Positions 5,552-10,683 of a DNA stretch of 64,000 bases are shown here, piece after piece (within the stretch, counting starts at the first letter, position 1; every line of letters starts with the position of its first letter). This DNA is from Nocardioides sp. S5 (lineage in GTDB: Bacteria > Actinomycetota > Actinomycetes > Propionibacteriales > Nocardioidaceae). Made by a program: the position numbers and the translations under genes. Location of the stretch: assembly GCF_017310035.1 (NCBI RefSeq), contig NZ_CP022296.1, positions 4,588,001-4,652,000 on the forward strand, given 5' to 3'. The notes under the pieces were generated by a model, which saw nothing but the letters and a program-made list of their open reading frames with translations, was not told the origin of the DNA and did not search any database.

Positions 5552-6046
5552 ATGCACCTGCTCACCCGCGCCGCCGACGCCTACGACACCGATGACGAGG
5601 TGAACCTCACCGGCTACGCCGAGAGCCTCGCGGTCTACTCCGCGAGCGTGGCCGGCCTGCTGCTCACGGCACGCGCCCGTGGCCGGTCCCTGCCCGAGCA
5701 CTACTCGGTGCAGGGCCTCGCCATCGGCGGCATGGCCACCCACAAGCTCACCCGGCTGCTCAGCAGGTCGTCGGTGACCAGTCCGCTGCGAGCCCCGTTC
5801 ACCGAGTTCCAGGGTCCGGCCGGATCGGGCGAGCACCTCGAGAAGCCGCGCAGCGGCCACGGGGTCCGCCACACCGTGGGCGAGCTGCTGACCTGCCCCT
5901 TCTGCCTCGGCGTGTGGGTCGGCACGGCGTACGTCACGGGGCTGGCCACCGCGCCGCGACCGACCCGGGCGCTGGCAGCGGTGCTGACGGTCGTGACGCT
6001 CTCGGACACGATGCAGCACGCCTACAGCCGCCTGCGCGGCGACTGA
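5552..6046 (+). CDS. DUF1360 membrane-associated protein
   Basis: 164 residues. It contains the DUF1360 signature: a THKLTRLLSRSSVTSPLRAPF segment near residues 63-83 and GELLTCPFCLGVWVGTAY near 110-127, the latter with a CxxC. Two or three hydrophobic segments suggest an inner-membrane protein. Homologues occur in Gram-positive bacteria, sometimes linked with sporulation or stress, but the function is unknown. It lies 51 bp after the acyl-CoA ligase on the same strand and may be cotranscribed. Confidence 0.8.
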   Translation: MHLLTRAADAYDTDDEVNLTGYAESLAVYSASVAGLLLTARARGRSLPEHYSVQGLAIGGMATHKLTRLLSRSSVTSPLRAPFTEFQGPAGSGEHLEKPRSGHGVRHTVGELLTCPFCLGVWVGTAYVTGLATAPRPTRALAAVLTVVTLSDTMQHAYSRLRGD

Positions 6047-7042: not shown

Positions 7043-7158
7043 GGCTCCAGCCTCGGTGCGCAGACCCTCCGCCGTGAGCAGTCGTTGGTCCACTCATCGG
7101 TGGGACAAAGGTCCCGCGTCCGCGAGCCCCCGGACCGCCCAGGCCCCATGATGGAGCC

Positions 7159-7935
7159 ATGACCAGCCACGACGTGACCGCGCCCGGTGTCGACGACCGG
7201 GCGCTCAGCTCGCTCCGCGGGTGGAACCTCGCACTGGCGGTGCTCCACCTCGCGCAGGCGGTCGCCGTGGTGGTGCTGGCGACCGACTTCGCGATCACGA
7301 TCACCCAGTCGCTGCCCACGGGTCCGCCCGGCAGCGCGATCGCGTCGCCCGAGGGCGTCCTCGACCTGCCCGTCGGGATCGCGATCGCGACCTTCCTGGT
7401 GCTCGCCTCCCTCGACCACCTGCTGACCGCGACGGTCATGCGCGGCACCTACGAGCGCGACCTGCGCGGCGGGATCAACAGGTTCCGGTGGGTGGAGTAC
7501 TCGTTCAGCGCGACCATCATGGTCGTCCTCATCGCGCTGTACGCCGGCGTCGTGGACGTCGCGGCCCTGATCGGGATCGTCGGCGCCAACGTGGCGATGA
7601 TCCTCTTCGGCTGGCTCCAGGAGTCGGCCAACCCGCCCGGCAGCCCCACCCGGACGATGAAGCCCTTCTGGTTCGGCTGCATCGCCGGCGCCGCGCCGTG
7701 GGTGGCGATCGGCGTCAACCTCCTCGCCGCCGAGGAGGTCCCCGGCTTCGTCGTCGGGATCTTCGTGTCGCTCTTCGTCTTCTTCAACACCTTCGCGCTG
7801 AACCAGTGGCTGCAGTACCGCGGCGTCGGGCCCTGGCGCAGCTACGCGTTCGGGGAGCGGGCCTACCTCGTGCTGAGCCTCGTCGCGAAGTCGGCGCTGG
7901 CCTGGCAGATCTTCGGTGGCTCACTGGCCTCGTAG
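7159..7935 (+). CDS. Heliorhodopsin (retinal-binding seven-helix protein)
   Basis: 258 residues with seven hydrophobic helices. Helix 7 reads SLVAKSALAWQIF, the heliorhodopsin signature, with the retinal Schiff-base lysine at K244 (codon 7888-7890). The helix-3 counterion is E113 in RWVEYSFSATIMVV. Histidines H30 and H87 fall 57 residues apart, the same spacing as the paired histidines in the reference heliorhodopsin 48C12. Type-1 rhodopsin pump motifs (DTD/DTE-like) are absent. Heliorhodopsins have an inverted topology with a cytoplasmic N-terminus, a slow photocycle and no established ion pumping; a signalling or enzyme-modulating role is suspected. No carotenoid or retinal-forming gene is in the window, so retinal must come from elsewhere in the genome or from outside. 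Neighbours are a divergent DoxX-like gene and a convergent terC. Confidence 0.92.
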   Translation: MTSHDVTAPGVDDRALSSLRGWNLALAVLHLAQAVAVVVLATDFAITITQSLPTGPPGSAIASPEGVLDLPVGIAIATFLVLASLDHLLTATVMRGTYERDLRGGINRFRWVEYSFSATIMVVLIALYAGVVDVAALIGIVGANVAMILFGWLQESANPPGSPTRTMKPFWFGCIAGAAPWVAIGVNLLAAEEVPGFVVGIFVSLFVFFNTFALNQWLQYRGVGPWRSYAFGERAYLVLSLVAKSALAWQIFGGSLAS

Positions 7936-7943
7936 GCGGGACC

Positions 7944-9179
7944 TCACGCCCGCGGCGGGAGCAGCTTGGACGGTCCCGTCGTCCCGGCCTCGCCGCGGTC
8001 GATGGCACTGTCGTGGCTGTCGCGGGCACGCTGGAGCAGCGCCATCAGCTCCTGCTCGTTGCGGGCCTTCTGGCGGTGCTTCGGCCCCAGCACGATGATC
8101 TGGTCCCGCTCGGCGAGCAGCAGCCCGTAGATCCGCTCCCGCTCGGCCGGGTCACTGGTGTACTCGGAGTCGAGGTAGTCCTCAGCGTGGCGGCGCGCGT
8201 TGTTGATCGCGTTGCGCGCCCGGCCTGCCGGGCTCACGATCGAGGCGACGACCGTCACGGCCAGGACGCCGAGGATGACGCTCAGCGACACGGTCGTGCT
8301 GATCTCGGTCACCGGGATCGGCTCGCCGTCGTTGATGAACGGGATGTTGTTCTCGTGCAGCGCATGGAGGATGAGCTTGACCCCGATGAAGGCCAGAATC
8401 GCCGCCAGGCCGTAGGACAGGTAGATCAGCCGGTCGAGCAGGCCCTCGATGAGGAAGAACAGCTGGCGCAGCCCGAGCAGCGAGAACGCGACGGCGGTGA
8501 ACACCAGGTAGGTGTTCTGCGTGAGTCCGAAGATCGCCGGGATCGAGTCGAGCGCGAAGAGGATGTCGGTGCCGCCGATCGCCACCATCACGAGCAGCAT
8601 CGGCGTCATGGCGCGCTTGCCGTCCACCATCGTGAAGAGCCGGTCACCGTCGTAGTGGTCGGTGGTGTGCATGAACCTGCGGGCGAGGCGGACGACGACG
8701 TTGTCCGCGCTCTCGGTGTCGTCGTGGTCGGACGTCAGCATGTTGCCCGCGGTGAGGATCAGGACCAGGCCGAAGAGGTAGAAGACCCATGCGAAGGAGT
8801 TGATCAGCGCGGCGCCGAGGAAGATGAAGCCGGTGCGCGCCACGAGGGCGAAGGCGATCCCGAAGAGCAGCACCTTCTGCTGGTCCTCGCGGGGGACCCG
8901 GAAGCTCGACATGATGATGAGGAAGACGAACAGGTTGTCGACCGAGAGCGCCTTCTCGGTGATGTAGCCCGCGAAGTACTCACCCCCGGGCGTCGTCCCG
9001 TCGAACACCAGGACCCCGAGGCCGAAGAGGATCGCGATCCCGACGTAGAGCGACGACCAGATCGCCGCCTCGCGCAGCGTCGGCACGTGGGCCTTGCGGA
9101 CGTGGAAGTAGAAGTCGAAGAGCAGCAGGCCCACGATGCCCGCGATCGTCAGGCCCCACGTGAGCGGAGAAACCTCCAT
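7944..9179 (-). CDS. TerC-family integral membrane protein
   Basis: About 411 residues. The TerC/Alx signature is clear: EKALSVDNLFVFLIIMSSFRVP near residues 75-97 and IGGTDILFALDSIPAIFGLT near 200-220, with acidic residues in membrane helices. Family members (Alx, MeeF/MeeY-type) are linked to manganese efflux, metal loading of exported proteins and tellurite resistance. The protein has a soluble C-terminal tail of ~80 charged residues beyond the usual core. The ATG at 9179 is taken as start, with GGGG 9-12 bases upstream. The leader carries a GGGGAGTA element. The gene converges on the heliorhodopsin gene with an 8-bp gap. Confidence 0.88.
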   Translation of the reverse strand: MEVSPLTWGLTIAGIVGLLLFDFYFHVRKAHVPTLREAAIWSSLYVGIAILFGLGVLVFDGTTPGGEYFAGYITEKALSVDNLFVFLIIMSSFRVPREDQQKVLLFGIAFALVARTGFIFLGAALINSFAWVFYLFGLVLILTAGNMLTSDHDDTESADNVVVRLARRFMHTTDHYDGDRLFTMVDGKRAMTPMLLVMVAIGGTDILFALDSIPAIFGLTQNTYLVFTAVAFSLLGLRQLFFLIEGLLDRLIYLSYGLAAILAFIGVKLILHALHENNIPFINDGEPIPVTEISTTVSLSVILGVLAVTVVASIVSPAGRARNAINNARRHAEDYLDSEYTSDPAERERIYGLLLAERDQIIVLGPKHRQKARNEQELMALLQRARDSHDSAIDRGEAGTTGPSKLLPPRA

Positions 9180-9220
9180 CACTGCCCCGTCAACGCCGGA
9201 TGGTCGAGGTCGTCGAGGAC

Positions 9221-9233
9221 GGGGTACTCCCCT
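9221..9233 (-). promoter_or_regulatory. GGGGAGTA leader element before terC (possible metal riboswitch core)
   Basis: In the terC direction the leader reads AGGGGAGTACCCC 42-54 bases before the ATG, followed by CCCCGTC, which can pair with GACGGGG next to the start codon. GGGGAGUA is a conserved loop in yybP-ykoY manganese riboswitches, which often precede TerC and manganese exporter genes. The second conserved loop of that class was not recognised, so this may simply be a translation-masking hairpin. Confidence 0.35.
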
Positions 9234-9312
9234 CTGCTCTCCATGATCCGCGCCCGGACGCACCCGGTCAACGGCCCGGACGGCAGGACGTCGTACCCCG
9301 TCCCGGCGCGGC

Positions 9313-10683
9313 CTACCCGGCGCCGACGAGCAGCATCGTGGTGGCGAAGACCAGCCCCGACGCGATGAGGGTGACGAGCGTGTAGCCGAGGATGTCGCGG
9401 ATCTTCAGCCCCGAGATGGCCAGCACCGGCAGCGCCCAGAAGGGCTGGATCATGTTGGTCCACTGGTCGCCGTAGGCGATCGCCATGATCGTCACCGAGG
9501 GGTCGACGCCGAGGCGCGCACCGGCGTCGAGCATCACCGGTCCCTGCACGGCGAACTGTCCGCCGCCCGACGGCACGAAGAAGTTCACCAGCCCGGCGGA
9601 GAGGAAGGCCAGCAGGCCGAAGGTCGAGGGACCGGCGGTGTCGACCAGGAAGTCGGAGAGGACGGTGATCAGGCCCGAGGTGGCCATGATCCCCATGATC
9701 CCGGCGTAGAGCGGGAACTGGAGCAGGATCTCGCCGACGTTGGACGCGGCGTTCTTCACCAGGGCGATCAGCTCCAGCGGGCTGCGCACCAGCAGGAAGA
9801 TCAGAGCCAGGAACGTCCAGTTGACGATGTCGAGTGTGGCCGTGCCGCCCTCGGAGTAGTGGATCACCAGGTAGGCGACCAGGGCCAGGCCGACCAGCGT
9901 CGTGAGCACCCGGCTGGCGTCCACGCGGTCGGCGGGGGTGACGACCTCGTCGATCACCAGGTCGTCGCCGAAGCGGGCGTCCGCGTCGAGCTCGATGACC
10001 GGGTCGCCGCCCCGCGGTGCCACCAGCGCCAGGCCGATGCCCACCGCGATGATGGTGGCGACGATCGCGAGCAGGTTCCACCAGGCGAAGGTGGTCTCGC
10101 TGATCGGGATGGTCTCGCCGAGCTGCTCGGCGATGAAGGATCCCTCGGTGGCCGCGGTCAGGGTGCCGGAGCCGGAGTAGCCCATGTGCCAGATGACGTA
10201 GCCGGAGTAGCCCGCCGCCACGAGCAGCGGGAAGTGCAGGCTCAGCCCCTTCTCGCGGCCCTGCTTGGCGACCTCGACCGCGAGCAGCACGCCGACCACG
10301 AGGCCGAGGCCCCAGGTGATCAGGGAGGCGATGGCGGCGACGAGGAAGACGAACAGGTATCCCTGGAGCGCCGTCCTCGGCAGGCCACCGATCTTCGCGA
10401 GCAGGCGCCGCACCGGTGCGGTGTTGGCCAGCGTGTGGCCCAGCAGCAGGATCAGCGCCATCTGGGTCATGAAGGCCAGCAGCCCGGACAGGCCCTCGCC
10501 CCAGCCGCGGGTGATGTCGACGGGACCGGCGTCCGTCAGGAGCAGCGCCATGATCGCCACGACGAAGGTCAGCACGATGGCGAACACCAGTGCGCTGGGG
10601 ATGAAACGCTCGACGACCGAGTTGACCGGTCGCATCACCCCCGCGAGCCCGGAGGATCGTTGCTTGGTGCTGGCGCTGGACAT
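9313..10683 (-). CDS. Short-chain fatty acid transporter, AtoE family
   Basis: 456 residues, 11-12 hydrophobic segments. Residues such as LGHTLANTAPVRRLL, HMGYSGSGTLTAATEGSF, NFFVPSGGGQFAVQGPVM and YGDQWTNMIQPFWALP match the AtoE family, which takes up short-chain fatty acids such as acetoacetate or butyrate by symport. GGTGAGGAAG lies upstream of the ATG at 10683 at good spacing. The gene is monocistronic, ending 133 bp before the terC start. A FadR-type palindrome lies ~230 bp upstream. Confidence 0.85.
   Translation of the reverse strand: MSSASTKQRSSGLAGVMRPVNSVVERFIPSALVFAIVLTFVVAIMALLLTDAGPVDITRGWGEGLSGLLAFMTQMALILLLGHTLANTAPVRRLLAKIGGLPRTALQGYLFVFLVAAIASLITWGLGLVVGVLLAVEVAKQGREKGLSLHFPLLVAAGYSGYVIWHMGYSGSGTLTAATEGSFIAEQLGETIPISETTFAWWNLLAIVATIIAVGIGLALVAPRGGDPVIELDADARFGDDLVIDEVVTPADRVDASRVLTTLVGLALVAYLVIHYSEGGTATLDIVNWTFLALIFLLVRSPLELIALVKNAASNVGEILLQFPLYAGIMGIMATSGLITVLSDFLVDTAGPSTFGLLAFLSAGLVNFFVPSGGGQFAVQGPVMLDAGARLGVDPSVTIMAIAYGDQWTNMIQPFWALPVLAISGLKIRDILGYTLVTLIASGLVFATTMLLVGAG

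What the first reader, a model, noticed from the sequence alone, without database searches (positions are those of the whole stretch)
7159..7935. Heliorhodopsin with intact retinal site and no retinal genes nearby
Seen directly: seven helices, K244 in SLVAKSALAWQIF, E113 counterion, H30 and H87 spaced as in the reference protein 48C12. Known: heliorhodopsins bind retinal, have a long photocycle and an inverted topology, and their physiological output is unsettled. Inference: since no carotenoid or 15,15'-dioxygenase gene is in the window, retinal must come from another locus or the environment. The neighbours (DoxX-like, TerC) are membrane proteins linked to redox or metal handling, a hint that the light signal may act on such a partner.
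Basis: partly seen in the sequence, partly recalled or inferred. Interest (0 to 1): 0.75.

Follow-up and report, generated by a model that had tools for sequence, protein, structure and literature searches.

The report
Heliorhodopsin gene; retinal-making step not found
This bacterium carries an ordinary, apparently intact gene for a light-sensing protein (a heliorhodopsin), but searches of its genome found no recognised enzyme for making the vitamin-A-like pigment the protein needs, and a second such gene rides on a mobile piece of DNA rich in ion pumps.

Summary
Window 7159-7935 (+) encodes a full-length heliorhodopsin (HeR1) with the 48C12 fold (47-49% identity) and H30, H87, E113 and K244 in place. 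The host is a Nocardioides relative with a one-contig 4.75-Mb genome.

A carotenoid cluster lies elsewhere in the genome, but no Blh/Brp or RPE65-family enzyme was found. Of 37 HeR genomes in the order, Blh occurs in 3, each beside a type-1 rhodopsin; 28 have neither enzyme. Such retinal gaps are in print. The DoxX-like and TerC genes are recent, lineage-specific neighbours of HeR1.

TerC remains the better lead: the genome's second HeR also adjoins a TerC gene, and 7 of 39 HeR loci in the order have TerC within 2 kb (0.12 expected). Against it: 17 of 60 neighbour families, TerC included, need as many changes on the HeR tree, 2 of the 4 HeR2-clade genomes have a broken HeR, and TerC is already a published HeR-neighbour class.

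The second HeR is cargo of a 35.2-kb tRNA-Val element with ion pumps; two relatives hold the same backbone without it. HeR1 itself is ordinary.

The parts
7159..7935 (+). heliorhodopsin HeR1, 258 aa; Schiff-base Lys K244, counterion E113, H30, H87
   Evidence: PF18761 and NF038020; 48C12 alignment; model and fold match
7094..7158 (.). 65-bp divergent intergenic stretch between the DoxX-like gene (-) and HeR1 (+); since the gene just upstream is on the other strand, HeR1 needs its own promoter (inferred)
7944..9263 (-). TerC/Alx family metal-homeostasis membrane protein (TerC1), convergent with HeR1 (8 bp between the genes); the start may be downstream of the listed GTG
   Evidence: PF03741, TIGR03718 365.8 bits
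6056..7093 (-). membrane protein, weakly DoxX-like (DoxX at 206-291, E 0.0035, below cut-off); stands between FadD and HeR1 only here and in N. lacusdianchii
5552..6046 (+). DUF1360 protein; no homologue at E 1e-8 in the other 118 HeR loci
   Evidence: PF07098
3809..5500 (+). FadD-type long-chain fatty-acid CoA ligase; directly upstream of HeR1 in 4 named Nocardioides loci
   Evidence: PF00501, NF004114 849.3 bits, synteny
9313..10683 (-). short-chain fatty-acid transporter, downstream flank of HeR1 in several relatives
   Evidence: PF02667
2299..3357 (+). PAS-PAS-ANTAR protein, possible sensor/antiterminator; a relative of it is adjacent to HeR in L040 and within 2 kb in L057 and L082

Best explanation
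HeR1 is a canonical type-3 (helio-)rhodopsin: seven helices, retinal bound to K244 as a protonated Schiff base with E113 as counterion, absorbing green light at roughly 550 nm, with a slow photocycle, acting as a light-regulated partner of another protein rather than as a pump. Shown here: family, fold (model), retinal-site residues and purifying selection. Inferred from studied heliorhodopsins: retinal binding, colour, photocycle, inverted topology, regulatory output. The bacterium most likely loads HeR1 with retinal taken up from its surroundings, since it has carotenoid genes but no recognised cleavage enzyme (absence of two families tested, uptake inferred). The output partner of HeR1 is not fixed by gene order: its neighbours turn over quickly. 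Among candidates TerC (manganese export or metalation) has the best, still moderate, linkage support across heliorhodopsins of the order.
For: Family and fold. Site residues: E113 and H87 in 110 of 110 aligned HeRs, K244 in 109 of 110 (1 gap), H30 in 107 of 110 (3 gaps). dN/dS 0.13-0.27, 5 of 5 pairs. A Nocardioides dokdonensis HeR expressed with retinal absorbs at 555 nm, and the tuning paper swapped two Gln of a 556-nm HeR against Met of a 530-nm one (PMC7807009, passages); HeR1 has Q154 and Q216 at what I take to be those positions. Precursor genes present, cleavage enzymes not found. HeRs reported to bind and regulate partners: glutamine synthetase (PMC9529153, abstract start and passages), photolyase (PMC9769723, abstract start), ABC transporter (PMC11109279, abstract and passages).
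Against: No experiment on this protein. A viral HeR transports protons (PMC9448325, abstract start), so 'no pump' is not universal. With no known retinal source in the genome the protein may often be empty. Lycopene-cyclase-domain genes are not significantly more common in HeR carriers (19 of 37 against 90 of 256, P 0.07; in the genus 16 of 24 against 36 of 61, P 0.62), which does not support a self-made chromophore. HeR genes look broken in 3 of 37 carriers. No neighbour is conserved enough to name the partner of HeR1.
Confidence: 0.75

Rival explanations
1. The cell makes its own retinal with an unrecognised enzyme that cleaves a carotenoid from the crt cluster, for instance the cytochrome P450 encoded in the cluster or another oxygenase.
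For: crtB, crtI and two lycopene-cyclase-domain genes with a P450 directly downstream. 28 of 37 HeR genomes have neither Blh nor an RPE65 homologue, and HeR1 is under purifying selection against five relatives, three of which (G165, G044, G032) are among those 28. A sub-threshold match to the Blh model exists at C1:3740926 (17 bits, E 0.009) and in close relatives G165 and G044.
Against: 15 of those 28 genomes also lack the CrtYcd-type cyclase, so no common precursor is evident, though other cyclases were not searched. The weak Blh match covers 54 residues, and 5 of 14 control genomes, E. coli and B. subtilis among them, also give sub-cut-off matches at the E limit of 1 used. Crt clusters of this kind often make other carotenoids (recalled). 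A published case of missing blh is read as uptake (PMC12422013, passages).
Confidence: 0.12
2. HeR1 works with the adjacent TerC: light changes HeR1, which alters Mn2+ export or metalation by TerC as part of photo-oxidative stress defence.
For: Both HeRs of this genome adjoin a TerC gene. 7 of 39 HeR loci in the order have TerC within 2 kb against 0.12 expected under uniform placement. On the HeR tree the label needs 4 changes (gains or losses), all forced by well-supported branches. TerC is a low-copy gene (79 copies in 37 genomes). TerC is one of ten published HeR-neighbour groups.
Against: HeR1 and TerC1 are convergent, not an operon, and the pair was seen in only three genomes: own, G165 (N. 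lacusdianchii) and N. furvisabuli. Orthologues L040 and L055 (88% and 84% identical HeR) have no TerC there. In the named set 4 of 80 loci have TerC within 2 kb, two of them the same genes as in the order set. Of 60 neighbour families counted on the tree, 17 (TerC included) need 4 or more changes and 7 need more than 4, so the tree count alone does not single out TerC. Of the four genomes of the TerC2-linked HeR2 clade, two (G140, G053) have a HeR that looks broken. The 2-kb limit was set after I had seen L037 at just under 2 kb; at 1.5 kb the count is 6 of 39.
Confidence: 0.18
3. HeR1 is tied to fatty-acid activation: FadD and HeR1 were one transcription unit in an ancestor, and HeR1 senses light for lipid or membrane adjustment.
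For: FadD lies directly upstream on the same strand in L077, L078, L082 and L083, about 35-75 bp apart by alignment ends.
Against: In the window two genes, one on the other strand, separate them; other HeR1 relatives lack FadD nearby. AMP-ligases are common genes and recur near HeRs in several lineages (F0, 6 changes).
Confidence: 0.07
4. HeR1 is a relic kept by chance and rarely loaded with retinal.
For: No recognised retinal source. HeR genes in G140, G053 and G192 look broken.
Against: HeR1 is intact with dN/dS well below 1 against five relatives, and the retinal lysine and counterion show no substitution in the alignment.
Confidence: 0.06

Closest known systems
Heliorhodopsin 48C12 (PDB 6su3, 6su4, 6uh3)
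   Same: fold (TM 0.87-0.89), retinal lysine, Glu counterion, two His, GPPG motif in the A-B loop
   Different: 47-49% identity; host, neighbours and retinal supply differ
Nocardioides dokdonensis HeR (555 nm, PMC7807009, passages)
   Same: same genus, GPPG class (PMC9385722 passage)
   Different: its sequence was not compared directly here
HeR groups defined by operon neighbours, including TerC (Cho et al. 2024, PMC11109279, passages)
   Same: TerC next to HeR
   Different: there TerC shares the operon with HeR; here TerC1 is convergent with HeR1 and TerC2 divergent from HeR2; their supplementary lists were not read
Rhodopsin bacteria lacking retinal synthesis genes (Luna-1, PMC12422013; Ca. 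Actinomarinales, PMC7771536; passages)
   Same: rhodopsin genes without blh
   Different: those aquatic groups also carry type-1 rhodopsins; of the 37 HeR carriers of this order 34 have no type-1 rhodopsin above cut-off

Membership tests
Heliorhodopsin (type-3 rhodopsin) | match to the curated family models | tested here: met
   PF18761 333 bits, NF038020 284 bits
Heliorhodopsin (type-3 rhodopsin) | SxxxK motif in helix 7 (criterion in PMC8612252) | tested here: met
   S240-L-V-A-K244 in helix 229-257
Heliorhodopsin (type-3 rhodopsin) | Glu counterion in helix 3 and conserved His pair | tested here: met
   E113, H30, H87 align to chain positions 107, 23, 80 of 48C12
Heliorhodopsin (type-3 rhodopsin) | seven helices with the HeR fold | tested here: met
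   predicted model and Foldseek match
Heliorhodopsin (type-3 rhodopsin) | inverted topology, N-terminus in the cytoplasm | not tested
   assumed from the family
Heliorhodopsin (type-3 rhodopsin) | binds retinal, slow photocycle | not testable with these tools
   needs expression and spectroscopy
Type-1 rhodopsin pump | PF01036 above cut-off | tested here: not met
   PF01036 not among HeR1's Pfam matches at E 0.001; in the whole genome only a sub-cut-off match at HeR2
Retinal prototrophy | Blh/Brp (PF15461, TIGR03753) or RPE65-family cleavage enzyme | tested here: not met
   none above threshold in own genome; the same searches find them in relatives
Retinal prototrophy | carotenoid precursor genes crtE, crtB, crtI, lycopene cyclase | tested here: met
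   crtE is called from position and sub-cut-off models only, and the end product is not known
tRNA-borne integrative element (carrier of HeR2) | tyrosine integrase, att direct repeats, insertion at a tRNA 3' end | tested here: met
   same backbone with other contents at the same tRNA in G165 and G146
tRNA-borne integrative element (carrier of HeR2) | transfer genes | tested here: inconclusive
   TrwC relaxase present; no coupling or secretion gene among the ORFs scanned, but not every ORF was scanned

The most novel reading that the evidence does not exclude
Heliorhodopsins in this order work repeatedly with TerC-type metal transporters, and one such light-gated pair has been packed with a V-type ATPase, Mrp antiporter, Na/Ca exchanger, Ca-type P-ATPase and a baeRF protein into a transferable tRNA-Val element, so that light control of cation homeostasis can move between bacteria, loaded with scavenged retinal.
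Probability: 0.11. Interest if true: 0.75.

Novelty: new member of a known kind. Interest (0 to 1): 0.4.

Why it matters
The output of heliorhodopsins and, in many carriers, the source of their retinal are open questions. This genome makes both testable in a Nocardioides relative: it has two different HeRs, each next to a different TerC, a carotenoid cluster, and no enzyme of the two known retinal-forming families searched. If TerC is a real partner, light would control metal homeostasis in these actinobacteria. If retinal is made without Blh or RPE65 homologues, a new enzyme exists. If it is only scavenged, retinal is a shared good beyond the aquatic cases in print. The element that carries HeR2 gives a concrete route for the horizontal spread of HeRs.

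Tried and rejected
Retinal genes near HeR1: none found. A gene always next to HeR that could be a hidden retinal enzyme: neighbour clustering gave families that I read by eye as TypA, FadD, ABC, SDR, response-regulator and TerC, none general. Co-distribution of HeR with lycopene cyclase or RPE65: not significant. Type-1 rhodopsin in own genome: the only match is HeR2 itself, below cut-off. DoxX as partner: weak name and lineage-specific. TerC1 as operon partner: convergent. HeR2-type loci of G134, G140 and G053: no homologue of the integrase (one 25% hit in G134) or relaxase at E 1e-6 in the fetched 60 kb, so the mobile carrier is shown for the own genome only. A plasmid search with HeR2 found two annotated HeR plasmids.

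Limits: gene calls outside the window come from a simple GC3 rule. The window beyond about 20 kb was not annotated. Of 119 HeR loci 118 gave a protein of over 190 residues (the one dropped is inferred to be L072, G192) and 110 stayed after duplicates. Neighbour families were counted for the 60 largest of 68 clusters, some of them antisense or syntenic artefacts of my ORF list. The order survey is 293 genomes drawn from a larger group. Colour-tuning positions were assigned by motif, not by aligning the published protein.

Full report
What the feature is. The window lies at G000:C1:4588001-4652000 of a one-contig, 4.75-Mb genome, completeness 99.15%. ORF 7159-7935 (+) is a 258-aa heliorhodopsin by Pfam and NCBIfam with scores far above cut-off. 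Aligned with 48C12, H30, H87, E113 and K244 fall on chain positions 23, 80, 107 and 241; H23 and H80 are named for 48C12 in PMC7807009 and Glu-107 in PMC9385722 (passages); K241 is recalled. The predicted structure has seven long helices plus short strands in the A-B loop and matches 48C12 structures with TM 0.87-0.89 at 47-49% identity.

Is it working? Across 110 aligned HeRs, E113, H87, W111 and N144 are present in 110 of 110, K244 and S240 in 109 of 110 with one gap, H30 in 107 of 110 with three gaps. dN/dS against five close relatives is 0.256, 0.209, 0.128, 0.262 and 0.273. HeR1 has Q154 and Q216 at what I take to be the two Gln positions that PMC7807009 exchanged between a 556-nm and a 530-nm HeR (passages; assignment by motif is mine). 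Absorption near 550 nm is therefore expected, not shown.

Retinal supply. Elsewhere in the genome there is one phytoene synthase (C1:2870208) inside a cluster: a polyprenyl diphosphate synthase (best models include GGPP synthases, none at cut-off), phytoene synthase, a CrtI-family desaturase (TIGR02734, 549 bits, cut-off 238), two lycopene-cyclase-domain proteins (62.7 and 42.7 bits, cut-off 39.4), a P450, a glycosyltransferase with sub-cut-off HpnB and CruG matches and, divergent, a MerR-type regulator whose best, sub-cut-off model is CarH. The cleavage step was not found: PF15461 none, RPE65 none, TIGR03753 none above cut-off (best 17 bits over 54 residues at C1:3740926; 5 of 14 control genomes also give sub-cut-off matches at the E limit of 1).

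The order as a control. Of 293 genomes of the order, 37 have HeR. PF15461 is found in 3 of these 37 (G041, G138, G184), and exactly these 3 have a type-1 rhodopsin above cut-off, 0.4-0.5 kb from the Blh gene by the listed coordinates. So the search can find Blh in this order, though none of the 14 standard control genomes has it, and Blh goes with type-1 rhodopsin, not with HeR. RPE65 homologues occur in 6 of 37 HeR genomes and 45 of 256 others (P 1.0). 28 of 37 HeR genomes have neither enzyme; 15 of these 28 also lack the CrtYcd-type cyclase, but G184 lacks that model and has Blh, so another cyclase is likely there and absence of this one is weak evidence. Cyclase-domain genes are in 19 of 37 HeR genomes and 90 of 256 others (P 0.07), in the genus 16 of 24 and 36 of 61 (P 0.62). 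Dependence on outside retinal is argued in print for Luna-1 (PMC12422013, passages), and Ca. Actinomarinales were reported without retinal synthesis genes (PMC7771536, passages), so the gap itself is not new; its extent in HeR-only carriers of this order I did not see stated in the passages I read.

Neighbours of HeR1. In the window the order is PAS-ANTAR, FadD, DUF1360, DoxX-like (-), HeR1, TerC1 (-), SCFA transporter (-). Relatives suggest how this arose: N. pinisoli has FadD-HeR-SCFA, N. furvisabuli FadD-HeR-TerC-SCFA, N. lacusdianchii FadD-DoxX-HeR-TerC-SCFA, and the window adds DUF1360. FadD is directly upstream and co-directional in 4 of 80 named loci (L077, L078, L082, L083). Many HeR1 relatives have none of these genes nearby, so gene order does not name the partner of HeR1. 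'DoxX-like' rests on an E of 0.0035, below Pfam's cut-off.

TerC beyond HeR1. The genome has a second HeR (C1:2905323-2906123, L006:7323-8123, 55% identical). It too sits next to a TerC gene, a different one (TerC2), this time divergent and followed by a baeRF_family3 gene. In the order, 7 of 39 HeR loci have TerC within 2 kb (6 of 39 at 1.5 kb; I set the 2-kb limit after seeing L037 at just under 2 kb). With 79 TerC matches in the 37 genomes, 0.12 would be expected under uniform placement. Four of the seven are one HeR2 clade in four genomes and two arrangements (divergent in own, G134, G053; same strand in G140), two are the HeR1 lineage (window, G165), and one (G146, L058) is a HeR1-type gene just downstream of TerC-baeRF. 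In the named set TerC lies within the fetched flank in 5 of 80 loci and within 2 kb in 4 of 80 (L076, L077, L095, L137; L076 and L095 are the same genes as L056 and L058). On the tree of 110 HeRs the TerC-adjacent label needs 4 changes, gains or losses, all forced by well-supported branches.

Controls and results against TerC. The 60 largest neighbour families were counted on the same tree: 17 of 60, TerC included, need 4 or more changes and 7 need more than 4, up to 7 for a cluster I read as ABC ATPases and 6 for AMP-ligases; several of the others are antisense or syntenic artefacts. The tree count alone therefore does not single out TerC; what does is that TerC is low-copy. Two of the four HeR2-clade genomes (G140, G053) have a HeR that looks broken. 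The TerC2-baeRF pair also exists without HeR nearby in G032 and with HeR about 13 kb away in G271. Cho et al. 2024 already list TerC among ten HeR-neighbour groups (PMC11109279, passages). TerC proteins are described as manganese-related transporters or metalation factors (search listing with abstract starts only).

The second HeR is mobile cargo. Between C1:2886010 and C1:2921259 lie a phage-type integrase, a TrwC relaxase/helicase, an HTH-like ORF (sub-cut-off) and an excisionase-like ORF that was not scanned, bounded by a 22-bp direct repeat that is the 3' end of tRNA-Val(cac). Inside, on the other strand, are V/A-type ATPase subunits (A, B, D, I; E below cut-off), a Ca-type P-ATPase, baeRF, TerC2, a universal stress protein, Mrp/Mnh-type antiporter genes (two confirmed by Pfam, the rest named by eye) and a Na/Ca exchanger; HeR2 is on the + strand. 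In N. lacusdianchii (G165) the same site, with flanks 97.6% and 94.3% identical, holds a 15.1-kb element with the same integrase (85%), relaxase (85-90%) and small ORFs (96-98%) and no match to any other of the 23 own-genome proteins searched except the flanking PGPGW gene. G146 holds a 9.9-kb element at the same tRNA whose only DNA matches to the own element are the two ends; its outer left flank did not match. HeR2 is therefore best read as cargo.

Is that in print? The library search 'heliorhodopsin + integrative + conjugative' returned 0 papers; 'genomic island' 7, 'horizontal gene transfer' 17 and 'plasmid + mobile genetic element' 4. Of these I read passages in three (PMC7771536, PMC10444878, PMC12008989) without seeing a HeR on such an element; the others I saw as listings only. 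It is not the only mobile HeR on record: PLSDB holds an annotated HeR on a 10.5-kb mobilizable Lactococcus petauri plasmid and on a Chloroflexota plasmid record.

How it most likely works. HeR1: light isomerises retinal on K244, the protein changes shape over a slow cycle and alters a bound partner; shown steps are fold, residues and constraint, the rest is inferred from other HeRs. Retinal most likely comes from outside. TerC is the best single partner guess for HeRs of this order, at about 0.18 for HeR1.

Verdict. The feature is real and ordinary in kind: a new member of the heliorhodopsin family. The interest lies in the retinal gap, now tested genome-wide for two enzyme families and across relatives, in the repeated TerC neighbourhood, and in the mobile second copy.

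Noticed in passing
own genome C1:2886010-2921259 (L005, L006, L156; outside the window): 35.2-kb tRNA-Val element with integrase, TrwC relaxase and 22-bp repeats, carrying HeR2, TerC2, baeRF, V-type ATPase, Mrp-type antiporter, Ca-type P-ATPase, Na/Ca exchanger and a universal stress protein; relatives G165 and G146 hold the same backbone at the same tRNA with other contents.
   Followed up: yes
G041, G138, G184 (L073-L075): In 3 of 37 HeR genomes Blh is present and in each lies 0.4-0.5 kb from a type-1 rhodopsin; Blh follows type-1 rhodopsin, not HeR.
   Followed up: yes
L004:6128-16047 (own genome C1:2868128-2878047): Carotenoid cluster with a divergent MerR-type regulator (sub-cut-off CarH match), P450, glycosyltransferase and UbiA-like gene, about 27 kb from HeR2; possible light-regulated carotenoid cluster.
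   Followed up: partly
L037 (G140), L071 (G053), L072 (G192): Three HeR2-type genes look broken: an in-frame stop in G140, a frame change and a stop in G053, a frame change in G192; sequencing error not excluded.
   Followed up: partly
L042 (G134): Three TerC-type genes within 20 kb around a HeR2-type gene, two of them closer to TerC1 than to TerC2.
   Followed up: no
NZ_CP141705.1 (L185): Annotated heliorhodopsin on a 10.5-kb mobilizable Lactococcus petauri plasmid beside an IS6 transposase.
   Followed up: no
own genome C1:3740926-3741084: Sub-threshold match to the Blh model (17 bits, 54 residues) shared with close relatives G165 and G044; probably chance but a cheap candidate to check.
   Followed up: no
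L114: A contig titled Bifidobacterium breve MAG carries a HeR that groups with MAGs labelled Actinomycetota and Acidimicrobiales; the label may be wrong.
   Followed up: no
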